Shown here: one piece after another, positions 4,800-46,102 of the stretch
Position numbering within the stretch: position 1 is the first letter of the stretch
Layout: the number at the start of each line of letters is the position of its first letter
Source: Pseudomonas abietaniphila
GTDB taxonomy: Bacteria > Pseudomonadota > Gammaproteobacteria > Pseudomonadales > Pseudomonadaceae
NCBI RefSeq assembly: GCF_039697315.1
Contig: NZ_CP155619.1
Coordinates: 1,860,001-1,924,000 of the forward strand
Reading direction: 5' to 3'
Length of the DNA: 64,000 bases
The notes under the pieces: generated by a model
Databases searched by the model: none
Seen by the model: the letters and a program-made list of their open reading frames with translations, nothing else
What the model was told of the DNA's origin: nothing
Translations under genes and position numbers: made by a program

Positions 4800-6378
4800 A
4801 GCCTGCGTGGCAATTCGCCCGCGCAATCCATGGGAAGCCATCGACCTCGGCGTACTGCTCGCGCGCCAGCATCGGCGTCTGTTGATGACGAGTTGGGCGA
4901 TCATCACGTTGCCGATTTTCGCGCTGATCAGCGGGTTGCTTTGGGACTATCCCAGCGTGGCGGTGCTGCTGTTCTGGTGGCTCAAGCCCGCGTATGAACG
5001 GCTGCCGTTGCTGATCCTCTCCCAGGCGCTGTTCGGCACAACGCCATCCTTGAAAGCCGCACTCAAGGCCTGGCCGCGTGCACTCAAACCGCAATTGCTC
5101 GCCAGCCTGACGTGGCGCCGGTTCAGCCTGAGCCGCAGCTTCTATCTGCCCGTACAACAGCTTGAAGGCCTGAACGGATTGCCACGGGCACAACGCATCG
5201 CGCTGTTGGGACAGAAGGACCGACGCGTCGCGCGCTGTCTGACGTCCATGGGCAGCACGCTGGAGATGTGCCTCTGGGTCGGCGCCATGTTGCTGTTCTA
5301 CGCGCTCATTCCCCAGCAGGTCGAACTGGACTGGTCGTGGCGCAGCCTGCTGGACATCGAAGGGCAATGGAACTGGCTGGAACATTTGACCAATGCGTTC
5401 TATGCGCTGGTGCTGGTGTTCTGGGGCCCGACGTATGTCTCGTGCGGTTTCGCCCTGTACCTCAATCGCCGTACGACGCTGGAAGCCTGGGACATCGAGC
5501 TGGCGTTCCGCCAATTGCGTCAGCGCGTGATGGGCAGTGCCTACGCGCTCTTGATCGGCCTCTCGCTTGCGTTCAGCCTGTCGCCGTCGAGCGCGATGGC
5601 AGCCGAGATCACAGACGAATCGAATTACAGCTGCCCATTGCCGCCTCTGGACTCCCCCTTGACGGACGAGCAGGTGGCAGGCCCCGCCGCAGCGCGTCTG
5701 CTCAACCAGCCGCTGACCAGCCAGGCCTCGCGACAAGCCATCAAGGCCGTGCTGGACAGCCCGCCCTTCAAGAACCCCAAAACCGTATCGGGCTGGCGAA
5801 TCGCCGACCAGAAGCACAGCGCAAAGACCGGCGACTCCCCTCAATGGCTGGCGAAGCTGGTCGTGGGTTTGCTGAACGCAGGCAAAACCCTGTCGAGCGT
5901 TTTCGAAGCGCTGCTGTGGACCGTCATCGCCGTGGTGGCCGGCTGGGTCGTGTGGCGTTATCGCGCCTGGTTCGGCACCTTTGTGAGCAGGGCGCAGCGC
6001 AAGAAACCCGCTGCGCGCACAACACCCCAACAATTGTTTGGCTTGCAGGTGGCTGCCGAGAGCCTGCCGGACGACGTCGCCAGTGCCGCAGAAAAACTCT
6101 GGTCACACGCACCGCGCGAAGCCCTCAGCCTGCTCTACCGCGCCCTGCTCAACCGCCTGCTGACCGACTATCAACTGCCTCTGAAAAATGCCGACACCGA
6201 AGGTCAGGTGCTGGCGCGCGTCGACGCCCTGAACCAGCCACCGCTCCACGCCTACAGCCATGAACTGACGCGCCACTGGCAAAACCTGGCCTACGGTCAC
6301 CGGCTTCCCGAAGCGGATGTGCAACAAGCCCTGTGTGACGAGTGGCGGCGGCTGTTCACCAAGGGAGCCGCTGCATGA
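4786..6378 (+). CDS. DUF4129-domain membrane protein of the MoxR cluster
   Basis: 530 aa. Predicted membrane segments near residues 25-60, 165-185, 205-225 and 245-263, then a periplasmic stretch, another helix near 375-390 (LLWTVIAVVAGWVVW) and a soluble C-terminal DUF4129 domain (APREALSLLYRALLNRLL... HALTRHW-like helices). DUF4129 domains are found beside transglutaminase-like and MoxR/DUF58 proteins; the biochemical function is not known. I prefer the ATG at 4786 inside the end of the upstream gene; a TTG at 4768 would add six residues. Its stop TGA overlaps the next start (ATGA). Confidence 0.82.
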   Translation: MRLTEACVAIRPRNPWEAIDLGVLLARQHRRLLMTSWAIITLPIFALISGLLWDYPSVAVLLFWWLKPAYERLPLLILSQALFGTTPSLKAALKAWPRALKPQLLASLTWRRFSLSRSFYLPVQQLEGLNGLPRAQRIALLGQKDRRVARCLTSMGSTLEMCLWVGAMLLFYALIPQQVELDWSWRSLLDIEGQWNWLEHLTNAFYALVLVFWGPTYVSCGFALYLNRRTTLEAWDIELAFRQLRQRVMGSAYALLIGLSLAFSLSPSSAMAAEITDESNYSCPLPPLDSPLTDEQVAGPAAARLLNQPLTSQASRQAIKAVLDSPPFKNPKTVSGWRIADQKHSAKTGDSPQWLAKLVVGLLNAGKTLSSVFEALLWTVIAVVAGWVVWRYRAWFGTFVSRAQRKKPAARTTPQQLFGLQVAAESLPDDVASAAEKLWSHAPREALSLLYRALLNRLLTDYQLPLKNADTEGQVLARVDALNQPPLHAYSHELTRHWQNLAYGHRLPEADVQQALCDEWRRLFTKGAAA

Positions 6379-7592
6379 ACCGGCGCACAGGGATGCTGAT
6401 CGGCGCCATCGTGCTGGTGTGCATCGCGATTGCCAGCGCACCGCTGCTTAAACGCATCGAGCACTATGAGGAAGTGGTTGACCAGGGCGCGTCACCTGAG
6501 GCGCGGGCCAACCCGTACCTCGCCGCGGAAACGTTTTTGCGTCAGCGAGGCGTGTCGGTCAACGTCACCCAAGCCCTCAACAACCTCCCTGATACGCGCC
6601 AGCAAACGCAGACCCTGATGCTGCTGGACACACGCGAGAAGATGACCCCGGCCGATGTCACCCGGGTGCTGAGCTGGACCCGTGCAGGTGGGCGACTGCT
6701 GTTCGTCGCCGAGCAGCTGTGGGATGAAAAGAAAGGCCGCAGCGGTGACCTGTTGCTCGATCAGTTGCAGGTCCATCAGTTCCTCACCCGTGATTTGCGC
6801 GAACAGGACAGACGGCGCGAACGCGAGCAGCTCAAGCCCGTCATCCCGTTGAGCACACCGGACATCGAGGCGCCAAAAACGCCCTGGCCGGAACTGACCC
6901 GACTCTACGTACAAAACGAAAACGACCCGGCCTACATGAGTTTCGACCCGGCCTTTCACCTGGACGATCCACAGGACCACGCACAGTCCTGGGCAAACAG
7001 CGCCGACGCCACCCACATGCTGCAGATGGTGTACGGCAACGGCCTGATCACGATCCTCACTGACGCGGATTTGTGGAAAACCCGCGCCATCGGCAAATAC
7101 GACAATGCCTGGTTGCTGTGGTACCTGAGCCAGGACAGCGACGTGACCTTCCTGCTGCGCACCGATCACGACGATTTGTTCGGGCTGCTCTGGAAGTATT
7201 TCCCACAGGCGTTGCTGGCGTTGGCGCTGTGCCTCGGTGCAGGTCTCTGGCACGCCGGTATGCGCCACGGACCGTTGCAGCCCGAACCCTCGCGAGCCCG
7301 TCGACAGCTGAGCGAGCACCTGCGCGCCAGCGCCGACTTTCTGCTGCGCCGCCGAGGTCAGCACGCGTTGCTACGATCCCTGCAGCAGGACATTCTGCGC
7401 CGCGCCCGACAGCGTCATCCCGGCTTCGAAACGTTACCGGTCACCGAACAGTGGCAATTGCTGGCCCGCATGACGCGCCAGCCGACCCGGCACATTGGTC
7501 AGGCCCTGCGCCCGCGCCTTGAAGAGCGCCTGTCCAGCACCGAATTCACCCGCCAGGTTGCCTACCTGCAAACCCTCAGGAATGCCTTATGA
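6375..7592 (+). CDS. DUF4350-domain membrane protein
   Basis: 405 aa. N-terminal signal-anchor (MLIGAIVLVCIAIASAPLL), a periplasmic DUF4350-type domain that begins NPYLAAETFLRQRGVSV and continues with a glutamine-amidotransferase-like stretch (LMLLDTREKMTPADV, GGRLLFVAE), a second membrane helix near residues 280-298 (ALLALALCLGAGLWHAG), and a basic helical cytoplasmic tail. Function unknown. It overlaps the DUF4129 gene by 4 nt (ATGA). Its own stop also forms ATGA (7589-7592), which in an undisturbed operon would be the start of moxR. Here moxR lies 9.3 kb further on because of an insertion. Confidence 0.85.
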   Translation: MNRRTGMLIGAIVLVCIAIASAPLLKRIEHYEEVVDQGASPEARANPYLAAETFLRQRGVSVNVTQALNNLPDTRQQTQTLMLLDTREKMTPADVTRVLSWTRAGGRLLFVAEQLWDEKKGRSGDLLLDQLQVHQFLTRDLREQDRRREREQLKPVIPLSTPDIEAPKTPWPELTRLYVQNENDPAYMSFDPAFHLDDPQDHAQSWANSADATHMLQMVYGNGLITILTDADLWKTRAIGKYDNAWLLWYLSQDSDVTFLLRTDHDDLFGLLWKYFPQALLALALCLGAGLWHAGMRHGPLQPEPSRARRQLSEHLRASADFLLRRRGQHALLRSLQQDILRRARQRHPGFETLPVTEQWQLLARMTRQPTRHIGQALRPRLEERLSSTEFTRQVAYLQTLRNAL

Positions 7593-7741
7593 TGCGGAGC
7601 GTTGCGGTCGTTAGATCACAGTGATATCAAAATCTTAGGTCTGTCCGTGGGGAGTGAAGAGGCGTAGCCGTAGCCATCAAACAGCCCAAGCAGACAGGGT
7701 GACATAGTGATTGGCCAACGACGGGATGAACGATGTAGCTT

Positions 7742-8400
7742 GTGTGGGGCAGCGAGGATTTCGTAATCGCAGGGCAACCTTATCAAGGGTTTCCTGTTCT
7801 GCTGTGGGACTCGATGGACAGCTGTACCCAGGCCAATCAATTCTTCCGTCGTTACCTCCTCCGTGGGGAGATCGGCTCGAAGAGATCCTGGCCGAATACC
7901 AGACGAGCGCTGTACGACTTCTATAGCTTCCTACAAGCCCATCACCTTGACTGGCGGGACGTAGATCGTGGTGAGGCGATGAGGCTTGTTGCTGCCTATC
8001 GGGACTAGTGTCTGGTGACGTGTGGATTGGCACGCAACACCCCCCGCCAGCGGCTGACGTACATCTGCAAGCTCCACGAGTTCGCCTTGGGAAAAGGTTG
8101 GGTTAAGCGCCTGCCGTTCGGTCATGTGGAGCGGACTGGTAAGCGCGAAACATGCTTCCTCAGACACGTTGATGCGAGTTGTGGCAGAGCCTTGGTGAAC
8201 GATGTGATGCCGCGCCGTCCCCCCCCCTGCCTGGATATCTGAGCATGTCCGAGACGAAGTCGCTTTTGACCGCGGTAGATAATCCACACCACCGCACCAT
8301 GATTCAGTTGGCCCTGCGCGCAAAGGCTTGCGTCGTAACGAACTAGCTACCTTTCCAGTCGCGTATGTTTTCGTCCCGGACGAGGCTGGAGGAAGCTGTG
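7742..8400 (+). pseudogene. Decayed tyrosine recombinase/integrase
   Basis: Pieces of a tyrosine-recombinase N-terminal region can be read in succession. Frame 1 from 7742 gives a SAM-like core-binding domain (RRALYDFYSFLQAHHLDWRD... LVAAYRD) ended by a TAG at 8006-8008. The same frame continues after the stop (CGLARNTPRQRLTYICKLHEFAL... DVMPRRP) to a C-run at 8218-8227, where the frame shifts. A second frame gives LTAVDNPHHRTMIQLALRA, and a third gives GLRRNELATFPVAYVFVPDEA. At least one nonsense and two frameshift changes are present, and no catalytic C-terminus (HxLRH...Y) was found. It probably once moved the island and can no longer do so. Confidence 0.7.
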
Positions 8401-8772
8401 AGCAGCCCCGTGCCAAGGGAAACGCCCATATCCCTTGTCCAGCGAAGGTATCCAGGAACTGTGAGATATGATCGGTGGGCCGGCAGTCGACCAAGTCCAT
8501 GCCCAGCGAAAGATCTCCATCTGCCAGAGTGCGCCCCATCGGCAGACTAGGGACGTGTCCAAGAAGCGGGCAATGGTGGCTAGTATCACAAAGCCATTAA
8601 ACGCTTGACGCAGATGATTTTTTTTAAGATGTTATCCGACTAATTATCATGGACGAAAAAATGTCGGCACCCTCTCTCTCCCAAGTACGGGCATTCCCTT
8701 CCGTTTCCAGGTCATGTGCGCCCCGAAGCCGGTGGTCGTCACGACAATCGCGCTCCGTGACGAGAAGCGAAC
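8401..8772. other. Gene-poor island DNA upstream of the large NTPase gene
   Basis: No reading frame here looks like a protein. The first part may be the unrecognisable remainder of the decayed recombinase. A TTGACG at 8605-8610 has no good -10 partner. Confidence 0.4.
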
Positions 8773-8803
8773 TTGGTAACGATAGCTCCATGCAGCATAC
8801 AAT
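8773..8803 (+). promoter_or_regulatory. Possible promoter of the two-gene NTPase operon
   Basis: TTGGTA (8773-8778) and TACAAT (8798-8803), spacer 19 nt, end 38 nt before the ATG at 8842. The spacing is long and the -35 weak, so this is tentative. The start codon itself has a good Shine-Dalgarno AGGGG at 8831-8835. Confidence 0.25.
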
Positions 8804-8841
8804 AAAAATGATCAAAACTACCTGTCGCCCAGGGGCTTTAG

Positions 8842-11800
8842 ATGTCTATCGATAATCCACGTGCCACATATGTTGCCGAACTTCCTCGCGCCCTTGAAAG
8901 CCACTCAGGATATATTGATCAGGTGCTGCTGAGCCAGATTCTTGGTGTCGTGCCTAGAAGTGGAAAAATCATTAGGTCTGTGATTAACACCCTAAGCTCA
9001 ACGCCTCTGAGTTCCAAAGCTAATGCAATGGAGCGTATGGCCTTACTAATTGCGGACAAACGCTTTCTGACGAAGTGGGAAAAATTTCCAAAAGGTTCAT
9101 TTCCAACATTTACATATTGCCTTAAAAGCTTCTTGAAGTTGAAAGACCCCAATTTGGCGCTAGACTCGGAGAAGCTTAAAGACTTCTTCGAAACTCGTAA
9201 TGGAAAAAAGAAATACCCAATTCTAGAGAATATGGATCTTCTCGTTAAAGTAGTACGAGAATCATCAGCAGACCGGCGAGTGGCAGCAATGTTCCTCTGG
9301 GCGCTCAGAGACGGTTGTATAAGTGGTTATGCAGAAGATCCAAGTGAAGAGTGCCTGTACGACTTCTGGCCACGACTTAACGAATCCTTGGAGAGAAGCG
9401 GTGAGATAGAGCTACTTGAGCTTATTCAAACGCCTATCTGGCATGTAAACACTAAACCGGCCGCCAATCTGATTACCAAAACGTCAGTTGAATTGAATTC
9501 GCCTGCGAAAAAAGTGCTAGAAGTAAGGCTCCCTCAAATAACTCCTTTTTTTGCAGAATTTAGCAGCCTGCTGAAGAAGATCGAGATTGAGATTGGCCGA
9601 TACGAGGTCTCCAATAAATTATTAGTTAGCAAGGTGACGTCGCTTCAGAAAGAAAAAGACCCTATAACGAGTCTGGAAGGAATTTCGGATATTGTGAATG
9701 ATGCGCGTAGCGCTTTTAATCATGCAATAACCCAGGCAGAAAATCTCGAAAGATATTTGAATTCGGCAATATCGGAGCGGTTAGCCGTATTGGGCGCGAA
9801 ACCTCTATACAATATCCAAGCTGAAGCGAGCCTTCTAGAATTCAATCGATGGAGCAAAGAAATCGTCGACTGGGGACAGAAGGTCGATATATTACTTCCC
9901 CGCCTGGACAGCATACTACTAAACAAACAAACTAACGAATCGCATCAACGGCTATATGAACCCCGAAAAATATCAAACTTCAACGAACTTGATAGCTTTT
10001 GCGTTGAGCTTGAAAAATTACAGAACATTGTTCTCAAAGGGGAGGAAGCTCTCCTCCTGGTTAACAGGCGAGTTCGTGAAAACCTGTCTAATCTAAGCTG
10101 GAGCGCGTTCGGTGACAAATCAATCACCAATAGATCTTGGGTTGCAGTAGCCCGGCTTCTTATTCAGCGCGAAGAGCTCAGCGTAAAACTTGCACTGATG
10201 GTTCATAACAGCTTCAACGATCTTCATCTTGACTTTTCCGAACTCATCAAGAAAAAGGTCGCAAGTAACGACAAAGATGAAATTATAAAACTGCTAGATA
10301 TACTGTCCTGGCTGTCACTAGGCCAAATAGAACAAATTTCCGAGAAGCAACCTGACCTGAAAGTAATATTAGCAGTAGTCGAGCTAGACGCTTACTTCAA
10401 ATCTTTAGCTCTGGGAGTTGATGGCTTTGTATGTTGGAGCTCTAGTCCTTTAAGGGACGTTATCTCTAGCCAAAGCAACAACCTATGCGAGATGTTCTTT
10501 CGACAAACATACGAAGCTTCCATCGGCTTTGGCTTCCATGCTTCGACTACCGATCAGATTCTTTTGCTCGCAGCTACAGCGCGAGTGCAAAGTGCACATA
10601 TTCAAAATCGAACCGCATCAAATGAAGCATTAGTAGCTAATTTAGCAGACACTTTATCATTCAGACGAAAGGGAGGAAAAACCACATATGCTCACATATG
10701 GCGAGAAGCATATGACGATACATTTAGTCATCTAGCCAAGTCATTAGAAAAGGGTGGTGTCGTCACTTTTCTTGAGGATTATAATTCATGGATGTCCGAA
10801 TTCGACATCGAAGAATACCTCGACAAATGGAAATCAGAGATTCCGGAACACCTAAAGAAAAACTCTGAATATAACAAATTCATTCGAAACCAAATTAGCT
10901 TAAAAACGCACGAAATCGACGCTTGGATTAAACTTTACAAGGCAAGTAGCGACGAGCCTCCTGAATTCGCTGACAGTGGAGCTACTAAAAAGCTTAAAAG
11001 AACACTAGGCGAATTGCTTAAATGCCAGGATTCTGAGTCGAGAACAATCCAAGCCTGGCTCGAAGCCGCGACCAGGCCACGAAGTGAACAAAACAATAAT
11101 TATGTTATGTACCAACGAAGTCAGGAGTCATGCAATACACAAGAATTAAATCTAACTGAGAGCAATCCTTTTCTGCCCCGTGTACTTACCCATAGTATGG
11201 ACGGGAAGTCCAGTTACGACGATCTGTTCACCGACGCCCTGATGTATGATTTCGGGTTCAACAAGCCTATACAACTTGCTGAACTTTATGAGTCCAAAGA
11301 TTTGCTAGAGGCGTATGCTTCGCTAGCAAATAAACTCAACGAAGAGTTGCCTCCAGCATTGGATCGAAAGATTGAAAAAAAAGTAGAAGATCTAGAAAGT
11401 CGGCAAGGCGTGAGATTGCTGGCCTTATCGAGATTGTATGACGGAATGGGCGAGACGGAAAGTACTGGCATAATAGCCAAGCTACAAGGGTACCTTGATA
11501 ATCATGAGTGGAATAATTTTGACAAGGAGTATTCCGAAGCCGAACAGTACATTCTCGAGCTTGAACATGAGAAAGAGCAAGCTAGTCGCCGCAATATCAT
11601 TATAAAAAAGATTACATCGCTGGGCGGAGTTTTAGAGCGCGATGATCTAGATGAGCAGGCGCTTACTAATATTCTCCACGCATTGGAGGTAGAGTATCTT
11701 CCCCGCCGGGCTCACATCGAAGTATTAAACAAAATTCAGTCTATATCCATCGCAGATAAAGGATTAGCTTCTGCAGTAGAATCATGTATACATACTTTAG

Positions 11801-14652
11801 AACAAGCGAACCCACTGCCCTCCGCTGACGCTTCGGAATCTGCCGCATTTTATCTTAATCAAGCTATTACTCCTCTCGCAAAGGAAATCGCTAGAAGCCA
11901 TACGTTATTGCCATCATACGCAAGGCAATTGAATTTGCTTGCCCTTTCCCTAGTGTATAATATTGAAAGGGCGAAGGATCTATTTTCGGATAATTCACTA
12001 CTCTTATCATTATTAGTGGAGACCGATGAGATTTGGCAACAGATTTCCGAAAGAGGTAAGGAAGGTGTAGATCTAATACTATCCGAGTTCACCAAGCGCG
12101 GCCTGTCGATTACTGTCCAAGCACCGGCTCCCTCTGTCGATATTGCGGTACGCACAGAGGTCGCTAATGCTCCAAGTGTTACACCAGATAAAGACATTCG
12201 GTCGATACTGATTGACATGTCAAGGAAAGCTAAAATTGGCACGGAGCTTATTGCCCCTAGCTCGGACATGCCATCCCTCATCAATTCACGAAATTGGAGT
12301 AGGACCGCAAACCTGGCGCTGCATACTTTAGCGCAATCCAACTACACCTCTAGGGAAGCTGTTGAGACATGGGCAATAGCAACATTACTTAACGATAGTA
12401 CCGCTTTTGGGATCCCTCAATACGCCTCCGTCATGAGTCTTTTTCGGAAAGATAGTGAGCTGCCAATAGTAAAAAGCATACTAACCGATAGAAGCCCCAA
12501 GTCTTCTTTAACAACCCTCTCGCTAGGATTTATTCAGCTTTTCGCGTGCGCCCTAGCTCCAGGCACTGCCATCGCACCAGTTTATGACAGCCTTCAAAAA
12601 ATCGTTCTTCTCATAGACGTGGCGCGGAAGTTTGAAAGAGAGTTTTCAGAGGTCTTTAGTGTCGGGAGCGGCTTTGAATCATTGGCCACAAGAGCGCTGT
12701 GGGAATCATTCACCGGCGACTCTAAGCAAGCGGAAGCACGGTCAACATTTATGTATCTGGCTTGGATGCTTCACGCACCAAGAACGTTAGCAAATTGCCT
12801 GATCTCTCAGCCAATAGATATTGAACAGCGTAAAGCGGAAGCGCTTGCAAACGCAGCAGATGTTGCGTTGAAAAATGGAATCCCCGATCTTATTCAGGGT
12901 TTTCTAGACTTGAAGCAAAGCATACCTTCAAAACCATTCCAACTCTTCGTTGAAATGATTCAGAAACAGTCGGTTGGTCAATCTGACTTACCGGCTATCT
13001 TGTCTGTAACTTCCGGTCTGCAACGAAGAAGTGACGGGCAGTTGTTCGCAGTTATTCGCCTATCGCCGAGAAAATCGGACAGCCCTGATCGACTAGTAAT
13101 CACTCTTCCACCGACGGCTCCGATCCGCTTCCCTGGAGCCTTGACAGCGCTAACTCTCGATGGGCCATTCCTGTCTGAAATATCTATCGTTCAAGAGTTT
13201 CTATTACTTGACGAGCGCGCTGAAATATTTTCAGTTGAGCTTCAGTGCGTTGCGACATCGCTAAAAGGAATCAAGTCGAAATTTGACCAGCGTTTGGACT
13301 TTACAATTGATGGCAGTGAAGAGTTCAATCCACTGACTTCTGATGAAATAGAGGAAGCATTTGACCATTTCCCTGCCCAACAAATGCGTGGTCCTCGGTA
13401 TGTTCCTCGTGTCGCTGATGAGCGCAAGATAGAGAAAGCTCTATTTAGTAGCAGGACAGTACGCAGCCTATGGATATCAAGTCCGCGGCGCTCCGGCAAG
13501 ACGACGATGTTGTTCAGGATTCTAGATGAGTTTTCCCATAAGGCTAATCGCGACAGCCTAGTTGTATACCTGACTCTAGACGAGTCCATTTCTGACATCA
13601 CGATGTTTAACAAGTGGGTTTGGAAGCGCATTCGCACTTTGAACCCAAACAAAGAGCTTAGGGAACTGTATCCCGACTTTGAGTTAATTGGGCGGGATTT
13701 GCCCTACGACTCAGATGCGGGGACATTTCTATGTCATATCTCAGACCGGCTACTGAATGGACACTCAGAAGCCTCTCGAATAATTTTCCTTATCGATGAG
13801 ATAGACCGATTCGCCTCGATGTACTTCGATAGCGACGACAAAAAGAAGGTTGCAACGGATATTCTGTGGCAGATCAGACTCGCTATCTCTGACAGGCGCG
13901 ATGTAGGAATTGTTTTTGCCGGATCTTCCGCATCAAAACAGGTGTTTATATCCAATGCTGAATCGCCTTTTTATAACAGCATCGACCACATGGAGTTAAC
14001 GCCGTTTTCATGTAAGACAGATCTACTAGAGGCTCACTCTAGACAGATCGTTGAGCCTGCGAGGATAAAATCGCGTCATGTGATGCCCAAGGAGGCTTTA
14101 GAGCACCTCATTTGGATATGCGCTGGCATCCCCTATTACATGAAGCTAGTTGCGGGCGCCACTTTTGCAGTTGCCAAGCAGTCGCACATTTTAAAAAGCG
14201 ACATCAACGACGGTCTGCGTGCACTTCTAGCCCGTGAAACGGGCATACCTAAGTTAGACGATATGGGAGGTGAGCCTGGCTCTGATGATTTAAGAACGAC
14301 AATTACTCTTCAACGTAATTTTGATGGAATTGTCGCGCAAGCGGTACTATATGCGTTCGCAGAGATCCATAGCCCCGTTAGTGGTCACAGAACGTATCGA
14401 GGCAAGTTGGCGTCTAAAGAAAGCAAACTTGTCTATAAGTACTTCCTCACCAAACCCACCATTGAAAGAGGAATTGACATCTGCATCGGGTTAGGTCTAA
14501 TTCGGCTAATAGAGAATGACAGCGCTCCCGAAATGGATTTTGTCATTCCTATCTTGGGAGAAACCCTTAGAAAGTCTTCTGGACGATTTTGGGCGACCAT
14601 CGACCATGAACTTTCCAACTATGGAATAGAGGAAGCGCAGAATGAACATTAA
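8842..14652 (+). CDS. Giant P-loop NTPase (1936 aa), candidate defence/conflict ATPase
   Basis: I do not recognise this protein as a named family. Residues 1 to about 1400 are mostly alpha-helical, without membrane segments or signal peptide; a charged, coiled-coil-like stretch lies near 895-925. A beta-rich segment near 1400-1500 precedes an AAA/STAND-like NTPase: Walker A SPRRSGKTT with K1553, Walker B IIFLIDEID with D1652 and E1653, and a sensor-1-like IVFAGSS near 1692-1696. The C-terminus (YRGKLASKESKLVYKYF... GLGLIRLI) looks like a winged helix. Such layouts (long sensor region plus a GxRRSGKT ATPase) are common in STAND-type immune ATPases, but no effector domain is evident. The next gene overlaps by 11 nt. 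Codon use is AT-rich, unlike the flanks. Confidence 0.85.
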   Translation: MSIDNPRATYVAELPRALESHSGYIDQVLLSQILGVVPRSGKIIRSVINTLSSTPLSSKANAMERMALLIADKRFLTKWEKFPKGSFPTFTYCLKSFLKLKDPNLALDSEKLKDFFETRNGKKKYPILENMDLLVKVVRESSADRRVAAMFLWALRDGCISGYAEDPSEECLYDFWPRLNESLERSGEIELLELIQTPIWHVNTKPAANLITKTSVELNSPAKKVLEVRLPQITPFFAEFSSLLKKIEIEIGRYEVSNKLLVSKVTSLQKEKDPITSLEGISDIVNDARSAFNHAITQAENLERYLNSAISERLAVLGAKPLYNIQAEASLLEFNRWSKEIVDWGQKVDILLPRLDSILLNKQTNESHQRLYEPRKISNFNELDSFCVELEKLQNIVLKGEEALLLVNRRVRENLSNLSWSAFGDKSITNRSWVAVARLLIQREELSVKLALMVHNSFNDLHLDFSELIKKKVASNDKDEIIKLLDILSWLSLGQIEQISEKQPDLKVILAVVELDAYFKSLALGVDGFVCWSSSPLRDVISSQSNNLCEMFFRQTYEASIGFGFHASTTDQILLLAATARVQSAHIQNRTASNEALVANLADTLSFRRKGGKTTYAHIWREAYDDTFSHLAKSLEKGGVVTFLEDYNSWMSEFDIEEYLDKWKSEIPEHLKKNSEYNKFIRNQISLKTHEIDAWIKLYKASSDEPPEFADSGATKKLKRTLGELLKCQDSESRTIQAWLEAATRPRSEQNNNYVMYQRSQESCNTQELNLTESNPFLPRVLTHSMDGKSSYDDLFTDALMYDFGFNKPIQLAELYESKDLLEAYASLANKLNEELPPALDRKIEKKVEDLESRQGVRLLALSRLYDGMGETESTGIIAKLQGYLDNHEWNNFDKEYSEAEQYILELEHEKEQASRRNIIIKKITSLGGVLERDDLDEQALTNILHALEVEYLPRRAHIEVLNKIQSISIADKGLASAVESCIHTLEQANPLPSADASESAAFYLNQAITPLAKEIARSHTLLPSYARQLNLLALSLVYNIERAKDLFSDNSLLLSLLVETDEIWQQISERGKEGVDLILSEFTKRGLSITVQAPAPSVDIAVRTEVANAPSVTPDKDIRSILIDMSRKAKIGTELIAPSSDMPSLINSRNWSRTANLALHTLAQSNYTSREAVETWAIATLLNDSTAFGIPQYASVMSLFRKDSELPIVKSILTDRSPKSSLTTLSLGFIQLFACALAPGTAIAPVYDSLQKIVLLIDVARKFEREFSEVFSVGSGFESLATRALWESFTGDSKQAEARSTFMYLAWMLHAPRTLANCLISQPIDIEQRKAEALANAADVALKNGIPDLIQGFLDLKQSIPSKPFQLFVEMIQKQSVGQSDLPAILSVTSGLQRRSDGQLFAVIRLSPRKSDSPDRLVITLPPTAPIRFPGALTALTLDGPFLSEISIVQEFLLLDERAEIFSVELQCVATSLKGIKSKFDQRLDFTIDGSEEFNPLTSDEIEEAFDHFPAQQMRGPRYVPRVADERKIEKALFSSRTVRSLWISSPRRSGKTTMLFRILDEFSHKANRDSLVVYLTLDESISDITMFNKWVWKRIRTLNPNKELRELYPDFELIGRDLPYDSDAGTFLCHISDRLLNGHSEASRIIFLIDEIDRFASMYFDSDDKKKVATDILWQIRLAISDRRDVGIVFAGSSASKQVFISNAESPFYNSIDHMELTPFSCKTDLLEAHSRQIVEPARIKSRHVMPKEALEHLIWICAGIPYYMKLVAGATFAVAKQSHILKSDINDGLRALLARETGIPKLDDMGGEPGSDDLRTTITLQRNFDGIVAQAVLYAFAEIHSPVSGHRTYRGKLASKESKLVYKYFLTKPTIERGIDICIGLGLIRLIENDSAPEMDFVIPILGETLRKSSGRFWATIDHELSNYGIEEAQNEH

Positions 14653-16504
14653 TTCGCACAAGCTTCTTGCTGAAGAGATAATACGATCATGGCTGAAACC
14701 GACGAGTAACTATGTAGTCATCGCTCCCCCTATGAGCGGCAGCAACCTCTTCTTTGCGGAACTAACGTCGCCTTCCAACATTCACCGCATTATCAGAAAA
14801 GACGCTGAGTTACTTGCTATCGCCAGACTTGACAACCGTGACTTTCATAACGATTTGCTGTTCGCTAAGCGTGTGGCCGTTAAATGGGGAGTTCTTGGAT
14901 CAGTGAGTGAGAGTTCCTCCGACGACCCCCTTGAAGTTATGAATTTTGCGGTCGCTCGACTTGTAGATGCGGGAAAGATCCCTGTAATAATTATTCAACG
15001 ATTTCATGAAGCCTTAAAAAAGCTTGGAGAAGAGATTGGCATACATCTGCGCAATTTGGAACATGAGTACAATCTTAAGACTGTTGTTGAATTGCCGGTG
15101 TCGCTCGACGTACTACGGCAGAGGTGGGACGCCATCGAAAAGGAGAAAGCTCCATTTTTGCAATCCGACTGGGGCCAAGGACATAGCCATAAGCTACTTA
15201 AGGGCTACTCTCTAGCTGAGTTGAGAGATAAGTCTGCAACCTATAAATTAAATCAAGGTATTGCGGATGTGCTCTTCAGCGCGACAGCTGGGATGGTGGA
15301 GCTCGTAGATCGGCTTTTACCGGATCTCGAGGGGAAAAATACCAACGGTGCCACAATGTATATTCGAAGTCGCTCGTTTGAACTTTGCGAGCGGCTGGTG
15401 AGGTGGTTAGATCCTCAAAACCTATCGCACGTTTATAAGAAATCCGTGGTAAATTTGCTCGACCCTCAGCTGTGCGTTGGAAGCGCGATAAACCTTAGAC
15501 ATCATGACTGGGCTGATATAATTCTAGATAAAACGTTCAAATTGAATTGCAGAATGCTGGCTTGGGCTTCTGTGTTTGTCCTAGCGAGACATTCGGACCC
15601 AAGCTTTACAAAAGGTCTGCGTGCGTTGATAGAGGCAAAAAAGTATAACCAAGCTGTACCTATACTCGACATTTTAATAGAAACGGACGAGCATAGTTCC
15701 CATAAATGGGCGGCAGTCAAGCTTGTAAATGAGTTCTCCTCACTAACTCAAAAACTTTTTCTCGAGGGCGCCCACTGGCATCAGGCGAACCGCATACTTT
15801 TTCTACTAGATGCTAGCCGTCAGCAGGTTGAGTCTGAAGGTTTGACGCTTCAAAACATATTAGCATGGAGACCCTTAGTATCGATGCTAGATGCCTTTTC
15901 CCGCGAAGTCCAAAACAACAAAGATGTGAGAATAGAAAATTACCTTTGTCAACATTACACTCGAGAAGAAATTTTACCGTTTTTTCATTTACTAAAGCTA
16001 CGCCTACAGTCGACGTCTATGCTGGATCCATATCTTGCTCTCCAATCCATCGTTACCCAACCAGAAGCAATTTTGCAAATATACGCATATTACGTTTTGG
16101 GTATCCAATTTTGGAATTTTGAAGGCTTGATCCCCGAAGAAAAGGAAGAAGTTAAGCAGTTTTCGCGAAAGTCTATTACAATTAATTGCACGTCTAACCC
16201 TTTGGGTTTTGTAGAGCTGCTTTATTTAGCTGCCTTTAGGACCAAAGATATTGATACTTCAACTCAATTCATCCGCAATTATGAGGACATCGACAAGTTC
16301 GAGCAATTTTACGAAGTTCGAAAGGGACAAGTCCATAGCACAGCCTTTGCTCAAGAAGCGAAAACTCGGGAATATCTTGATTTTTGTTATGCTTTGATAG
16401 AGCGTGCGTTCCAATGTATTTACCCTGGCTCTTCAAGCTCCTGGCTTCAAGAGCCTGGATTGATGGTGGGAAAAATGATCGATCATATTGTACCGAACGC
16501 CTGA
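14642..16504 (+). CDS. Partner protein (620 aa) with degenerate P-loop domain
   Basis: Unrecognised family. The N-terminal ~200 residues look like a P-loop domain that has lost its key residues: the Walker A position reads VIAPPMSGSNLF (residues 26-37), with Ser-Asn where Lys-Ser/Thr is expected, and the Walker B-like strand reads IPVIIIQRFHEA (113-124), with Gln for Asp. From about 240 on it is a helical-repeat-like region without membrane segments. The start ATG lies inside the end of the 1936-aa gene (11-nt overlap), so the two are translated together and probably act as a complex, one active and one inactive ATPase. Shares the island's AT-rich codon use. Confidence 0.82.
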   Translation: MNINSHKLLAEEIIRSWLKPTSNYVVIAPPMSGSNLFFAELTSPSNIHRIIRKDAELLAIARLDNRDFHNDLLFAKRVAVKWGVLGSVSESSSDDPLEVMNFAVARLVDAGKIPVIIIQRFHEALKKLGEEIGIHLRNLEHEYNLKTVVELPVSLDVLRQRWDAIEKEKAPFLQSDWGQGHSHKLLKGYSLAELRDKSATYKLNQGIADVLFSATAGMVELVDRLLPDLEGKNTNGATMYIRSRSFELCERLVRWLDPQNLSHVYKKSVVNLLDPQLCVGSAINLRHHDWADIILDKTFKLNCRMLAWASVFVLARHSDPSFTKGLRALIEAKKYNQAVPILDILIETDEHSSHKWAAVKLVNEFSSLTQKLFLEGAHWHQANRILFLLDASRQQVESEGLTLQNILAWRPLVSMLDAFSREVQNNKDVRIENYLCQHYTREEILPFFHLLKLRLQSTSMLDPYLALQSIVTQPEAILQIYAYYVLGIQFWNFEGLIPEEKEEVKQFSRKSITINCTSNPLGFVELLYLAAFRTKDIDTSTQFIRNYEDIDKFEQFYEVRKGQVHSTAFAQEAKTREYLDFCYALIERAFQCIYPGSSSSWLQEPGLMVGKMIDHIVPNA

Positions 16505-16522
16505 TGCGTTAATGTTTTTTGA

Positions 16523-16568
16523 GTCCAGATCTCATCCGTCGTTGCATTAGCGTAGCTGAGGTCTGGAC
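16523..16568 (+). terminator. Stem-loop after the NTPase operon
   Basis: GTCCAGATCTCA (16523-16534) pairs with TGAGGTCTGGAC (16557-16568), 12 bp with one G-T pair and a 22-nt loop, starting 18 nt after the stop of the 620-aa gene. No T-run follows, so it may be a weak terminator, an mRNA-stabilising hairpin or a protein site. Confidence 0.4.
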
Positions 16569-16896
16569 CGCTAAATCTCTATCTGTGGCACACTTTAGTT
16601 TTCAGCTGAGATGTTCTATGACTTATTTAACCCAGCGAGCTACTAAAGCGCGGGGCTCATTAACTTAGAATTCTAGGTAATGGGGTTAATTATAGCTGTA
16701 GCTGTCATGCATCGCGATTTTCACGAACATCTACAAATCTTTATGGGTTACATTATCTACGCGTTCGATATGAGGCATCAGCCTCCACTCAGACCCTTTC
16801 TCATCGGGAATCAGAGGTTGTTGATCCCGAGGATCGCCCACTCGTCAGAAAGCGGACGTCCTAAAAAAGCAGTTAAATTAGGTAACCTGTTGATTT
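16569..16896. other. Gene-free right end of the island, with a dyad at 16804-16830
   Basis: No convincing gene. TCGGGAATCA (16804-16813), an 8-nt spacer, and TGATCCCGA (16822-16830) form inverted arms of the size seen in tyrosine-recombinase core sites, but could also be a simple hairpin. The DNA is AT-rich close to moxR (16865-16920) and could supply a new promoter for moxR; none is clear enough to call. Confidence 0.35.
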
Positions 16897-18021
16897 ATGA
16901 AAAAAAATATAGATTTAACAGTTAGCTGGGCTCCGGAAATTGTGAGCGATCACCCGACCGAACCGTCGAGCAGCGTAGCAAACCCGGCAGAATCCCCCGA
17001 ACAGCCCGGCATCGACCAAAAAGACGCCGCTCCGCATGCTGCGCCGGCCAGCAACCCTGCGCAGCAACGCCAGCGGGCCATCCACCTGGCTCAAGCCGTT
17101 CGCCATGAGTTGCAGAAGGCGGTAATCGGCCAGGACGCGGTCATCGACGATGTGCTGACTGCGTTGATCGGTGGCGGCCATGTCTTGCTGGAGGGCGTTC
17201 CCGGCCTTGGAAAAACCTTGTTGGTGCGCGCCCTCGCCCGCTGCTTCGGCGGCGAGTTTGCACGCATTCAGTTCACGCCCGACTTGATGCCCAGCGACGT
17301 CACCGGGCATGCGGTCTACGACATGCAGACCGAGCAATTCAAACTGCGCAAAGGCCCCTTGTTCACTAACCTGTTGCTGGCTGACGAGATCAACCGCGCC
17401 CCGGCCAAGACCCAGGCGGCGCTGCTCGAAGCGATGCAGGAGCGTCAGGTCACCCTCGAAGGCCGCGCCCTGCCCGTGCCGCAGCCGTTCATGGTGCTGG
17501 CGACCCAGAATCCGATCGAACAGGAAGGCACTTACCCGCTGCCCGAAGCCGAGCTGGACCGCTTCATGCTCAAGCTGCGGATGGATTATCCACAGGCCGA
17601 GCAGGAACTGGACATGGTGCGTCAGGTGACGCGATCGACGCGCTCGGACATGCTGGACGTCCAGCCGCTGCGCACGTTGATGCAGGCCAAGGATGTGCAA
17701 GCGCTGCAACGCATCGCCAGCGACTTGCCGGTGGACGAACAGGTGCTCGACTATGCGGTGCGTCTGGCTCGCGCCACGCGTACGTGGCCAGGTCTGACGC
17801 TCGGTGCAGGCCCTCGCGCCTCGATTGCACTGGTCCGTGGCGGACGTGCCCGGGCGCTGTTGCGCGGTGGCGAGTTTGTGATTCCTGACGACATCAAGGG
17901 CTGCGCGCTGGCGGTCCTGCGCCACCGTGTAAGGTTATCGCCCGAGCTCGACATCGAGGGCATGTCGGTGGATCAAGTGCTCAAGCAGTTGCTCGATCAG
18001 GTTCCGGCGCCGCGCCAATGA
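16897..18021 (+). CDS. MoxR-family AAA+ ATPase
   Basis: AAA+ ATPase of the MoxR class, thought to act as a chaperone that assembles or activates partner complexes, often with DUF58/VWA proteins. Counting from the ATG at 16897: Walker A GVPGLGKT (100-107), Walker B LLLADE (159-164), sensor VLATQNPIEQEGTYPLPEAELDRF and the C-terminal lid. The native start was probably an ATG overlapping the DUF4350 stop. After the island insertion the reading VSDHPTEPSSS begins at a GTG at 16942. Fifteen island-derived codons from an upstream in-frame ATG (16897) could extend it; neither start has an ideal ribosome site. The stop overlaps the DUF58 start (ATGA at 18018-18021). Confidence 0.92.
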   Translation: MKKNIDLTVSWAPEIVSDHPTEPSSSVANPAESPEQPGIDQKDAAPHAAPASNPAQQRQRAIHLAQAVRHELQKAVIGQDAVIDDVLTALIGGGHVLLEGVPGLGKTLLVRALARCFGGEFARIQFTPDLMPSDVTGHAVYDMQTEQFKLRKGPLFTNLLLADEINRAPAKTQAALLEAMQERQVTLEGRALPVPQPFMVLATQNPIEQEGTYPLPEAELDRFMLKLRMDYPQAEQELDMVRQVTRSTRSDMLDVQPLRTLMQAKDVQALQRIASDLPVDEQVLDYAVRLARATRTWPGLTLGAGPRASIALVRGGRARALLRGGEFVIPDDIKGCALAVLRHRVRLSPELDIEGMSVDQVLKQLLDQVPAPRQ

Positions 18022-37449: not shown

Positions 37450-40356
37450 ATGGATGAATATTCTCGCTCGTTACTGTCCAATCTTGTGAAAAAAACCTCA
37501 ACGGCAAGTGAGCACATTGATAGCACCCGTTTTCTGAACGCGCTAGAACAAATAAATTGCCGTTCGGTTTTCGACATACTGCGCCTCTCAAAGCGGTCCT
37601 TTGTTCGTGAAATGCGTAAACTAACAGGCGTGAATGCGAACCTTGCTTACGAGAACGCTCAGTGTTACGCCACGCAAATTGCGCGCCTTTATCGTAACGA
37701 ACTTGTTTCTTCTGAGCGTCACGCACACTCACCGAACGGAAGTGGCATACGTTCACTTGTTGAGATCGGCCCCAGTTTTCAAAACCTGTTTCAGGAGAAC
37801 TGGAGTACATTTTGCAATGTGGGTGCCGTGGAGGCCATGGACTCTCCTGCGGCTTATCTAATATCGCTTTACAGATTTGCAACAGAAAAGCTCGAAAGCA
37901 GCACCGCCGATGCAAAACGTGTGGTGATTGACACCAGACGTCCGGATTTAAAGAATTTGACCATCGACCAAGTGAGTACCTTTAAAGCGGTACCGATGCT
38001 GGAAATTGTAAACAAAGTTCTAGAGGAAGGAATCAGGCGATATACAGACAGCGATGGCAATACTAACGCAGGCAAAACCATTTACGAGCTCATCGCGCAA
38101 AAAAAACACCCATTCCTGTTTCCTTATAACTTCTACCACCATCAGGTATACCTTGCCCTGTCAAAAAGAACATTAAGTCTTGGAGAACTCCGCCACACGG
38201 TAAGCCGACAACTGCCAATCTTTGGCGACCCCGGAAGCGTGGCATTCGGGAACGTTAACTTGCCCTCTTCAGAGGCTGCACTGTCTTCATCTAATGCGCA
38301 ACTCATGCTGACAGACTTAAGCCCTGAACAGATCCAGATCCTGACTCTCCTCGATTGGCCTGCACCTGAAACCGATACCGCTGTCCTTGAAGATCGGTTC
38401 CGGGAGTACTACTCAAGCGAATACAACGAGAACAACCCTCTTAACTCTGTGAATGAATTCATGCGTAAAACCGGTGTCACAGCGGTGGAGCTTGAATCAC
38501 TGCTCGCCACCAGATCGCAAACGCCTGTTCCCTCAACACACGCGACTGCTATTGCGGGTACACGCCACGCCGCGCAGTACGGAGCTGCCTATGTCAACGT
38601 CGCTAACGGTGGAGACGAACTGGCATTAACGGGTACAGGGGACAGCGCCAGTATCGACAAAACCACATATAAAACATTTGACAGACTGCAGCGCTTCATC
38701 AGACTCCAGCGGTGGTTGAAGATTCCTTGGGCAGATTTAGACACGTTACTTATTTCAACGCCCAGAATAGAAGCTGTCACCGGACAGAGCAAATTTTCGA
38801 CCAATACATTGCGCACGATCGGCGTATTCAAACATTTGGCAAAACGTTACAAGATTTCGCCCGGGGAGTTTGCCGGCATCATTGACCGCGTTGCGATCTT
38901 CTCTGTGGGCGGTAAACTTTCACTGTTTGATGAGACATTCAATAAGGCTAACATCTTCGACCGTACACTCACCCTGGACAATCGTACGTTGACACTGCCC
39001 TTGGACACGCAAACAGCCTCTACGCTGGCCAATGGACTGAAGTTAGACGCAAACACAGGTTTTTTCTTAAGCTTGGTCGAGGAGTCTCTGGAAACGCCGC
39101 CAAGAATGAGTCAGGCGTTTATAACAAAATTGTACCGTCAGAGCCGTATTGCCCGATTGTTTAATCTGTCTTTGGAGGACCTTTACCTGCTGGTTAACAT
39201 GCTGGGAGGGGTGACCTACACCGACATCCTAAAAAACGGGACAATACGTAACACAACGCCCAGAACCACACCCGATCTATTTGATCTGTTGATGCAATGC
39301 GATTGGGCGGTAACGTGGTTTAAAGATGTTCAATGGAGCGTGAAAGCGTTAGACGACCTTATTAATCACAGCACTGCTCCCTTGGTGGACATCGTGACTA
39401 GCGCATGGGTCGACAACCTTAAAATCGAAGCTACATCGCTCTCTGACAGCGTATCAGAAGGTTTGACGCACATGGACATCCCAGCACTAACAGTGGGCGC
39501 TGGTATTGATAACCGTTGGTATGAACTGGTGTTTTCAACGCTATTAAACGATGCAGGCTTTATCTTTGCGACCGAAGACGTGCTGGTGACCGTTCGCCAA
39601 AAACTGCAGGGATTGACGGATGCAAAAATTGACGGCGTGCCGTGGGAAGTATACCCAGGGTTATCCAACACGTTGAATCTGATTTCTTCGACGGTGACTT
39701 TTTATCTCCGCCTTCAAAACGAAAAGGTCGGCGGCGTATTGTCAGACATTGGCTTATCCCCGCAGACGGCAAATGATTTACTGCTGTATATACAGTCTTC
39801 CCCTGAGGCGCTACTGGCAGCGGCCACCGGTGAAGTCGAAAGTTTCAAAAACATGCTAAAACACTTATATAAACTTTGCGAATTAAAAAAAGCCACCGGC
39901 ATCAGCCAACTGGCTTTTCTTAAACTGGCTCAGCATCCACAATGGCTTGATCCTAACCTGGCAGCACCTTTACCGGTCTCGTTGGCAAGTATCTACTTAT
40001 TTACCAGTTATACCCAATGGGTGCAATACGTCAATCAGCCAGAAAAAAAGATGATTGAGTATCTTGAATTCGCAAACATTGATTCGCCCAGCGATGCTCA
40101 TCCTGCACAGTGCGCAGAACGACTGTCTTCCCTGCTGGACCTCTCTTCAGCGGACATCCTCCAGGCATCCAATTTACTCAGCGGAAGCGTAGCAAGCTGT
40201 GTATCAGAGATACACTGGCTGATAAGACTCAAACAAATGACTGTTGCAACCGGACTTTCTGTGACGACACTTTTGTTGGCAACCAGTCTGACACCGGACA
40301 GCTCAGAGGCTGACTGGGAGAAAGTCGGTAGCGCCTCCATTGGCTCTACGCTCTAA
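37450..40356 (+). CDS. tcaA: Insecticidal toxin complex A component, first part (TcaA-like)
   Basis: 968 aa. N-terminal Salmonella-virulence-plasmid A/TcdA-like (VRP1) helical shell region: FLNALEQINCRSVFDILRLSKRSFV, DSPAAYLISLYRFATEKL, RRPDLKNLTIDQVSTFKAVPMLEIVNKVL, FPYNFYHHQVYLALSKRTLSLGEL. More helical shell follows to the C-terminus. In TcaA/TcaB-type systems the A subunit is encoded in two genes that together replace one ~2500-aa TcdA. This is the first piece: 968 + 1581 = 2549 residues. Start at 37450 with GGAGGG eight nt upstream. Coupled to the next gene by a 41-nt gap. Visibly lower GC than the genomic background. Confidence 0.88.
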   Translation: MDEYSRSLLSNLVKKTSTASEHIDSTRFLNALEQINCRSVFDILRLSKRSFVREMRKLTGVNANLAYENAQCYATQIARLYRNELVSSERHAHSPNGSGIRSLVEIGPSFQNLFQENWSTFCNVGAVEAMDSPAAYLISLYRFATEKLESSTADAKRVVIDTRRPDLKNLTIDQVSTFKAVPMLEIVNKVLEEGIRRYTDSDGNTNAGKTIYELIAQKKHPFLFPYNFYHHQVYLALSKRTLSLGELRHTVSRQLPIFGDPGSVAFGNVNLPSSEAALSSSNAQLMLTDLSPEQIQILTLLDWPAPETDTAVLEDRFREYYSSEYNENNPLNSVNEFMRKTGVTAVELESLLATRSQTPVPSTHATAIAGTRHAAQYGAAYVNVANGGDELALTGTGDSASIDKTTYKTFDRLQRFIRLQRWLKIPWADLDTLLISTPRIEAVTGQSKFSTNTLRTIGVFKHLAKRYKISPGEFAGIIDRVAIFSVGGKLSLFDETFNKANIFDRTLTLDNRTLTLPLDTQTASTLANGLKLDANTGFFLSLVEESLETPPRMSQAFITKLYRQSRIARLFNLSLEDLYLLVNMLGGVTYTDILKNGTIRNTTPRTTPDLFDLLMQCDWAVTWFKDVQWSVKALDDLINHSTAPLVDIVTSAWVDNLKIEATSLSDSVSEGLTHMDIPALTVGAGIDNRWYELVFSTLLNDAGFIFATEDVLVTVRQKLQGLTDAKIDGVPWEVYPGLSNTLNLISSTVTFYLRLQNEKVGGVLSDIGLSPQTANDLLLYIQSSPEALLAAATGEVESFKNMLKHLYKLCELKKATGISQLAFLKLAQHPQWLDPNLAAPLPVSLASIYLFTSYTQWVQYVNQPEKKMIEYLEFANIDSPSDAHPAQCAERLSSLLDLSSADILQASNLLSGSVASCVSEIHWLIRLKQMTVATGLSVTTLLLATSLTPDSSEADWEKVGSASIGSTL

Positions 40357-40397
40357 GCACATCGTTACGTTCAGTCTATTGAGTTCAGGAGAAAAAT

Positions 40398-45143: not shown

Positions 45144-45171
45144 CATGTAGCCCGTGCGAGGTCGGAAGCGT

Positions 45172-45504
45172 TCAACCACTCAGAGGCGACGCTTCCGCCA
45201 ACGCACCACCGCCCCGCACCAGACTCAAGGGCGGCGCAAAGGCTCGGTGCTGGCTTAAATAACGCATACAACTGACCCGCAGGAACGAGGCGAAATTGAT
45301 CACTTCGCCCCGGTAATCCATGACCTCTTCGTACAGTTTGCTGATCAGTTGGTTGGTGGTGATGCCGTCGTGACCCGCGATTTCGGCGAGGATGTCCCAG
45401 AACTGGTTTTCCAGGCGCAGGGTCGTGACGACGCCGCAAATGCGCAGTGAGCGTGAGCGGGATTCGTACAGAATGGGGTCGGCCTTTACGTAAAGTTCGC
45501 ACAT
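45172..45504 (-). CDS. Ribbon-helix-helix domain protein
   Basis: 110 aa. SRSLRICGVVTTLRLENQFWDILAEIAG-type N-terminus with a hydrophobic strand followed by two helices (GITTNQLISKLYEEVM; VINFASFLRVSCMRYL), the pattern of RHH_4-type ribbon-helix-helix proteins. It could bind DNA or act as a small accessory factor. Start at 45504 with a GGAGGG ribosome site. The DJ-1 gene upstream on the same strand ends 17 nt before it, so they are probably cotranscribed. They lie between tcaB and tccC but need not be toxin-related. Confidence 0.78.
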   Translation of the reverse strand: MCELYVKADPILYESRSRSLRICGVVTTLRLENQFWDILAEIAGHDGITTNQLISKLYEEVMDYRGEVINFASFLRVSCMRYLSQHRAFAPPLSLVRGGGALAEASPLSG

Positions 45505-45520
45505 GCGACGTCCCTCCGTT

Positions 45521-46102
45521 TCAAAGAATGATCTGCGTGCCGAGGACCTTGAGGAACGCCGCCAACCAGGCCGGATGCGCGGGCCATGCAGGACCGGTGA
45601 CCAGTTTGCCATCGGTGTGCGCTTCGTCCATGCCGATCTCGACGTACTCGCCGCCTGCCAACCGAACCTCGGGCGCACAGGCGGGGTAGGCGCTCACCGA
45701 TTTGCCCTTGAGCACGCCGGTTTCAGCCAACAGTTGCGGACCGTGGCAGACAGCGGCAATCGGCTTGTCATCGCGACCGAATTCGCGCACCAGTTCCAGC
45801 ACCCTCTCGTTGAGGCGCAGGTACTCAGGTGAGCGGCCACCGGGCACCAACAAGGCGTCGTAGTCGGCGGACTTCACGCTGTCGAAATCGAAATTCAGGC
45901 CGAAATTATGGCCGCGCTTTTCGCTGTAGGTCTGATCACCTTCGAAATCATGAATGGCCGTGCGAATCACATCGCCCTTCTTTTTGCCCGGGCAGACAGC
46001 ATGCACGGTGTGCCCGACCATCTGCAGCGCCTGGAAGGGCACCATCACTTCGTAGTCTTCGACGTAATCGCCGACCAGCATGAGAATTTTCTTGGCAGCC
46101 AT
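45521..46102 (-). CDS. DJ-1/PfpI-family protein
   Basis: 193 aa, full length for the family. Rossmann-like start ([23 protein letters not shown]), the nucleophile elbow [12 protein letters not shown] with the reactive Cys, and a Glu in the first helix (EDYE) to support it. DJ-1/PfpI enzymes include deglycases/glyoxalases and chaperone-like proteases; the member's activity cannot be told from sequence. Start with a GAGG ribosome site at 46109-46112. Likely operon with the RHH gene downstream. Confidence 0.9.

What the first reader, a model, noticed from the sequence alone, without database searches (positions are those of the whole stretch)
8842..16504. Undescribed two-gene NTPase system on an island
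Seen: a 1936-residue protein with one complete P-loop NTPase near its C-terminus (Walker A SPRRSGKTT, K1553; Walker B IIFLIDEID, D1652-E1653) and a very long helical N-terminal region, translationally coupled (11-nt overlap) to a 620-residue protein. Both are AT-rich and lie in an island next to a broken recombinase. Known: giant proteins with a sensor region plus STAND/AAA ATPase and a small partner are typical of prokaryotic immune and conflict systems. Inference: this pair is a new system of that kind. I know no named family with this layout, and no effector domain is obvious, so the killing or interference mechanism would also be new.
Basis: partly seen in the sequence, partly recalled or inferred. 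Interest (0 to 1): 0.9.

Follow-up and report, generated by a model that had tools for sequence, protein, structure and literature searches.

The report
Split bacterial immune receptor with RNase
Two neighbouring bacterial genes appear to form a split immune alarm: a giant sensor with a working molecular switch, and a partner whose switch is dead but which carries an RNA-cutting domain like that of a CRISPR enzyme, so that it could stop an infected cell from growing.

Summary
The two genes are real and intact at the stated coordinates, on an AT-rich insert. A (1936 aa): fast-evolving, largely helical N-terminal part, then a C-terminal STAND NTPase with winged helix (nearest solved folds: archaeal STAND ATPases, NLR resistosomes, CED-4); Walker residues kept in 27 of 27 aligned sequences. 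B (620 aa): a second STAND/ORC-like domain without Walker A in 59 of 59 informative sequences, then a Csm6-like HEPN RNase domain whose catalytic set (Ex3Q, Rx4H) is kept in 60 of 60. A and B trees match (r=0.98, 19 pairs); the pair is rare and patchy, lies at different sites, and in one Stutzerimonas genome sits among restriction genes. Kaur et al. 2021 predicted a two-gene operon of this logic (nSTAND2), yet neither protein matches the nSTAND2 profile: a new, uncharacterised family of that kind. Likely mechanism: A senses an invader, co-assembles with B using ATP, HEPN is activated, RNA is cut, growth stops. Defence activity is inferred, not shown.

The parts
8842..14652 (+). Gene A, 1936 aa: putative sensor plus active STAND NTPase
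   Evidence: Intact ORF; 44 hits including itself, most about 1900-1980 aa
8842..11052 (+). A residues 1-737, not modelled; fast-evolving, residues 241-430 look like helical bundle/coiled coil
   Evidence: Mean pairwise identity 0.23, 0.15 and 0.25 for residues 1-240, 241-430, 431-737; profile matches only helical bundles in the PDB
11053..12993 (+). A residues 738-1384, all-helical solenoid-like region
   Evidence: AlphaFold2 model, DSSP helices; mean pairwise identity 0.25-0.28
12994..13308 (+). A residues 1385-1489, beta-strand domain of unknown type
   Evidence: Strands at model residues 648-752; barely covered by the structure comparison
13363..14574 (+). A residues about 1508-1911, STAND/AAA+ NTPase with winged helix
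13480..13503 (+). Walker A of A, residues 1547-1554 (SPRRSGKT)
13783..13800 (+). Walker B of A, residues 1648-1653
14642..16504 (+). Gene B, 620 aa: pseudo-STAND domain plus HEPN RNase effector
   Evidence: Intact ORF; 51 hits including itself; AlphaFold2 mean pLDDT 88.9, pTM 0.84
14642..15376 (+). B residues 1-245, ORC/STAND-type AAA+ fold without Walker A; degenerate Walker B (invariant RFH, residues 120-122)
15578..16483 (+). B residues 313-614, Csm6-like helical/HEPN region
16064..16078 (+). B E475-x3-Q479, counterpart of Csm6 E332-x3-Q336
   Evidence: 51 of 51, 9 of 9 further; alignment to Csm6
16319..16336 (+). B R560-x4-H565, HEPN catalytic motif
   Evidence: 51 of 51, 9 of 9 further; aligned to Csm6 R415/H422
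7742..8242 (+). Remnant of a tyrosine recombinase in two short frames (only 7742-8008 was searched)
6342..7592 (+). DUF4350 gene, left border of the insertion site
   Evidence: Pfam DUF4350 E 2.1e-29
16897..18021 (+). MoxR-type AAA gene, right border; next to DUF4350 in 13 of 14 same-genus loci examined

Best explanation
A and B are a two-protein, NLR-like (STAND) immune system. A is the sensor and switch: its large fast-evolving N-terminal part binds a cue of an invader, and its C-terminal STAND NTPase exchanges nucleotide and oligomerises. B is the effector: its N-terminal domain has the same AAA+/STAND kind of fold but cannot bind ATP in the normal way; it docks into A's assembly as a dead subunit, and its C-terminal Csm6-like HEPN domains are brought together and cut RNA without sequence choice, causing growth arrest or death of the infected cell. 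Shown by computation: intact pair, domain folds, active and dead NTPase motifs, complete HEPN motif, co-evolution, patchy distribution, different insertion sites. Inferred: heteromeric assembly, direction of signalling, RNA cleavage, phage as the trigger.
Confidence: 0.62

Rival explanations
1. B's dead STAND domain, not A, is the sensor: it binds nucleic acid (or a nucleotide signal) and A is the ATP-driven assembly platform, as Kaur et al. propose for inactive STAND domains in general.
For: B's pseudo-NTPase core is strongly conserved (0.51 mean pairwise identity for residues 111-245) with invariant non-catalytic residues (R120, F121, H122, S175-G180), as expected of a ligand site. The proposal is in PMC8195603 (passages).
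Against: Strong conservation fits a fixed interface with A equally well; the fast-evolving part, typical of a sensor facing phage, is in A.
Confidence: 0.17
2. Toxin-antitoxin or growth-control module: B is an HEPN RNase toxin kept inactive by the giant A, released by stress and with no dedicated phage sensing.
For: HEPN toxins with a partner gene are common (PMC3710099, passages); overlapping two-gene operon.
Against: A 1936-aa STAND protein with intact Walker motifs in 27 of 27 is far from usual antitoxins; the toxin lies downstream; N-terminal variability of A suggests recognition of a changing target.
Confidence: 0.12
3. Mobile-element maintenance or DNA-handling function: the ORC/TnsC-like folds reflect a role in replication or transposition of the island.
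For: Structure hits include ORC/Cdc6, TnsC and MuB; a recombinase remnant is adjacent.
Against: No transposase or replication gene travels with the pair in the five loci; the recombinase is a fragment; the HEPN motif has no role there.
Confidence: 0.05
4. B's HEPN domain is a structural, non-catalytic fold and the effector is elsewhere (for example in A residues 1-737, never modelled here).
For: A residues 1-737 and 1385-1489 have no assigned function; the HEPN assignment is computational.
Against: Catalytic R and H are kept in 60 of 60 sequences, while flanking HEPN sequence is only 0.21-0.38 identical.
Confidence: 0.04

Closest known systems
nSTAND2 two-gene counter-invader operon (predicted; Kaur et al. 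2021, eLife 10:e70394, PMC8195603)
   Same: Two-gene mobile operon; both proteins carry STAND NTPase modules; one has lost its NTP-binding motifs and is fused to an effector, HEPN RNase being one of the two commonest; predicted hetero-oligomer.
   Different: Neither protein matches Pfam PF20702 nSTAND2 (no match in the whole genome at E up to 10); A matches AAA_14/AAA_35/ATPase_2 instead. In this family the effector does not vary: 58 of 58 hits to B's NTPase region are 583-624 aa. The very long helical part of A is not mentioned in the section read. Sequences of the paper's own examples could not be compared (supplements not available).
Csm6 (type III CRISPR ancillary RNase)
   Different: The CARF sensor is replaced by a dead STAND domain; NCBIfam cas_csm6 does not match in this genome; partner is a STAND NTPase, not a Cas10 complex.
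Avs / bacterial NLR-related single-protein STAND systems
   Same: STAND NTPase switch with a large recognition region and a nuclease-type effector.
   Different: Effector and NTPase switch are split over two proteins and the NTPase is at the C terminus of the sensor. Order effector-NTPase-sensor in Avs is recalled, supported in passing by PMC9122126 (passages). Avs3 (8dgc) appears among B's fold matches only through the NTPase fold.
Plant sensor/helper NLR pairs and NAIP/NLRC4
   Same: Two STAND proteins of divided labour acting together; analogy only.
   Different: Different effectors and no common origin of the pair tested; seen only in search listings.

Membership tests
STAND/AAA+ NTPase (protein A) | P-loop NTPase core with Walker A and B | tested here: met
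   27 of 27 sequences; AAA_14 in 24 of 24, (window protein 24.2 bits, below the curated 27)
STAND/AAA+ NTPase (protein A) | STAND-type fold with C-terminal winged helix | tested here: met
STAND/AAA+ fold (protein B) | AAA+/STAND core fold | tested here: met
STAND/AAA+ NTPase (protein B) | Walker A and B motifs for catalysis | tested here: not met
   No GK[ST] in the first 60 residues in 0 of 51 and 0 of 9; Arg120 in 51 of 51
HEPN RNase (protein B) | Rx4-6H motif, polar residue after R, at the end of a helix | tested here: met
   R560 and H565 in 51 of 51; K561 in 43, S in 4, G in 3, N in 1; helix 547-563
HEPN RNase (protein B) | Conserved upstream acidic residue in an Ex3[KR]-type motif | tested here: met
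   E475-x3-Q479 in 51 of 51; Q instead of K/R, as in T. thermophilus Csm6 E332-x3-Q336
HEPN RNase (protein B) | Metal-independent RNase activity | not testable with these tools
   Needs biochemistry
Csm6 | Match to the cas_csm6 family model | tested here: not met
   No TIGR02672 match in the window's genome at E up to 0.001; no NCBIfam match to B but FdhE at 0.084
Csm6 | N-terminal CARF domain | tested here: inconclusive
   Region 1-245 aligns to AAA+ folds; absence of CARF rows is not proof
nSTAND2 two-gene system (Kaur 2021) | Two-gene operon, both with STAND modules | tested here: met
nSTAND2 two-gene system (Kaur 2021) | One partner with eroded NTP-binding motifs fused to HEPN or GT4 | tested here: met
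nSTAND2 two-gene system (Kaur 2021) | Sequence membership of the nSTAND2 NTPase family (PF20702) | tested here: not met
   0 matches in the own genome at E up to 10; no nSTAND2 in Pfam scans of A and B
nSTAND2 two-gene system (Kaur 2021) | Arginine finger in both proteins | not tested
   Would need a complex model; no interface was modelled
nSTAND2 two-gene system (Kaur 2021) | Variable effector on the eroded partner | tested here: not met
   58 of 58 hits to B residues 1-250 have 583-624 aa; the search admits only 0.55-1.75 times the query length
Anti-phage defence system | Protection against phage | not testable with these tools
   No experiment
Anti-phage defence system | Patchy, horizontally moved, near other defence genes | tested here: met
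   rarity; insertion between DUF4350 and MoxR; restriction genes beside one of five loci

The most novel reading that the evidence does not exclude
A heteromeric bacterial resistosome: an ATP-competent STAND sensor and a catalytically dead STAND-HEPN effector co-assemble in one ring, so that the switch and the RNA-cutting effector are divided between two proteins, a bacterial counterpart of paired sensor/helper NLRs in which a Csm6-type RNase is driven by protein assembly instead of cyclic oligoadenylate.
Probability: 0.4. Interest if true: 0.8.

Novelty: new variant of a known kind. Interest (0 to 1): 0.58.

Why it matters
If right, it turns an unlabelled pair of proteins annotated 'hypothetical protein' or 'ATP-binding protein' into a testable immune system: it tells which residues should matter (A K1553, B R560 and H565), gives a first concrete family in which to test the 2021 prediction that active and dead STAND subunits assemble together, and shows a Csm6-type RNase under a control other than cyclic oligoadenylate. 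It also shows how a defence system can be missed by current libraries when its effector is recognisable only from structure.

Tried and rejected
B as a sequence-detectable paralogue of A's NTPase: rejected on sequence; kept as a structural statement only.

Carriage on phages, plasmids or viral contigs: no match; E. coli genomes: no match to a 3991-base piece of L004 in blastn mode, which would miss more divergent DNA.

Direct repeats marking the insert ends: none between the borders at 14 nt or longer. Rfam: nothing at gathering score in 7400-17100. Promoter- and terminator-like sites are at chance number (13 against 12.3 and 8 against 8.2); one terminator-like site lies just behind B (16496-16510). 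PHROGs: none for A or B. BFVD structures: AAA/clamp-loader proteins only, no full-length match in the 50 rows shown.

Two weak hits of the A profile in other families of the class (G894, G990; E 7e-4 and 9e-4, residues 220-412) were dropped as matches to the helical low-complexity region. In the distance comparison 19 pairs were used (18 of the 20 rows with a shared contig length, plus the window): P0067 was dropped as truncated and P0093 because two B rows share its contig length; pairing by equal contig length is an assumption. Foldseek's first-ranked hit for A, Brr2, was rejected (TM 0.10, rmsd 29.6).

nSTAND2 comparison set: PF20702 gave 4 weak matches in 239 genomes; three regions were read and looked, by eye, like other STAND families, so no alignment was built. 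True nSTAND2 operons were therefore not compared directly.
Full report
OBSERVATION. The two ORFs are as described: A 8842-14652 (+), 1936 aa, and B 14642-16504 (+), 620 aa, overlapping by 11 nt. They fill the AT-rich stretch of the window (GC 0.42-0.47 over 9-17 kb; 0.60-0.64 on both sides). The window lies in a single-contig genome of 6.55 Mb and B occurs once in it.

SITE. Upstream genes are RDD, SpoIIM, DUF4129 and DUF4350, downstream MoxR and DUF58. In the 18 other same-genus genomes, 14 had a MoxR match at E 1e-80 or better; in 13 of these 14 the DUF4350 gene is directly next to MoxR, so the segment between 7592 and 16897 is an insert. In the 14th (G018) two other genes lie between, judged from gene order. 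The insert carries a fragment of a tyrosine recombinase (7742-8008) whose relatives are on 100 plasmid records.

FAMILY. The B search gave 51 hits and the A search 44, the window's own included, in both cases nearly all full length; names given by the sources are Pseudomonas, Stutzerimonas, Klebsiella aerogenes, Pantoea ananatis and, Massilia. Whole-genome scans: 3 of 398 same-genus genomes (own included), 2 of 298 of the family (own included), 1 of 56 of the genus of G571, 2 of 328 in a second same-genus draw, both already found; in the class draw of 369 only the own genome had a real match. The GTDB 220 contig scan confirmed 3 loci among 18 pattern matches. So the pair is rare and patchy. 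In five independent loci read as DNA (window, L002, L003, L004, L011) B follows A directly (for L011). L006 and L007 are the same loci as L002 and L003, judged from identical ORF lists. Distance matrices of A and B agree with r=0.977 (19 pairs, 0 of 2000 permutations as high).

HEPN TEST. Anantharaman et al. 2013 (PMC3710099, passages) define HEPN RNases by Rx4-6H at the end of helix 3, usually a polar residue after R, and often an upstream Ex3[KR]. T. thermophilus Csm6 uses R415, N416, H422, with E332 holding R415 (PMC10897365, passages). B has R560-K-x3-H565 at the end of helix 547-563 and E475-x3-Q479 in helix 473-486; Csm6 has E332-x3-Q336; E-to-R distance is 85 and 83. All four residues are invariant in 51 of 51, and the motifs recur in 9 of 9 further sequences. 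As a control, B's C-terminal profile was compared with the last 280 residues of 95 non-homologous ORFs: the best was the second Thermus CARF-type CRISPR protein (19.5; next 18.3). TtCsm6 itself had been missed by the ORF picker and was run apart: 21.5. Both alignments put R560/H565 on the Rx6H of the Thermus proteins. Each P value alone is weak (0.027, 0.054). That the second protein is an HEPN RNase is my recall; the record calls it a CARF protein.

NEIGHBOURS. L003 has a DDE transposase upstream; the IS3-like genes beside B in L004 are recognised by eye only. So direct positional evidence for defence comes from one of five loci.

MECHANISM. Shown: folds, motifs, pairing, distribution. Inferred from established STAND and HEPN biology: A senses, binds ATP and oligomerises; B joins through its dead NTPase domain; clustering pairs the HEPN domains; RNA is cleaved; the cell stops growing. 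The main rival is that B's dead domain is the receptor, as proposed for inactive STAND domains in PMC8195603.

PRIOR ART. Section 15 of Kaur et al. 2021 (PMC8195603, read whole; other passages) describes a distinct, mobile two-gene operon whose two STAND NTPases (nSTAND2) include one with eroded motifs fused most often to GT4 or HEPN. The logic here is the same. Membership in the nSTAND2 sequence family was tested and not met: PF20702 finds nothing in this genome at E up to 10 and does not appear in Pfam scans of 24 A or 24 B sequences. Unlike that operon, the effector does not vary here: 58 of 58 hits to B's NTPase region have 583-624 aa. DefensePredictor (PMC13092281, passages) reports four HEPN systems, none described in those passages as a STAND pair; Tha (PMC11087260, passages) is a single HEPN protein. 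Literature searches for such a pair (an open-access library only) showed no experimental study of it in their listings.

VERDICT. A real, conserved, previously unlabelled two-gene STAND system with a Csm6-like HEPN effector: a new variant of a predicted kind. Interest 0.58: the architecture makes the prediction of mixed active/dead STAND assemblies directly testable, but the class was foreseen and no activity is shown.

Noticed in passing
window 37450-48993: An insecticidal-toxin-complex-like cluster (VRP1 match E 3.2e-48 in 37450-40356; Rhs core match in 46309-48993) in a second lower-GC stretch. The label is from these matches and recall; described only.
   Followed up: no
window 7742-8242: Tyrosine recombinase fragments; relatives mostly on Pseudomonas plasmids (66 of 100 records), which hints at a plasmid-borne element as the former carrier.
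   Followed up: partly
L030:14102-16487: In another same-genus genome (G018) the same DUF4350/MoxR gap holds two other genes, so the gap may be a recurrent insertion site.
   Followed up: partly
window 14642-15376 (B residues 120-122 and 175-181): Invariant or near-invariant RFH and SDWGQGH in the dead NTPase domain of B: a conserved site of unknown role, either the interface with A or a ligand pocket.
   Followed up: no
window 12994-13308: A beta-strand domain between helical region and NTPase of A, not identified.
   Followed up: no
L043:5859-10456 and L041:6225-9768: Runs of STAND-like P-loop ORFs beside long membrane-like Ala/Gly/Val-rich P-loop ORFs, found through weak nSTAND2 matches; seen by eye only.
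   Followed up: no
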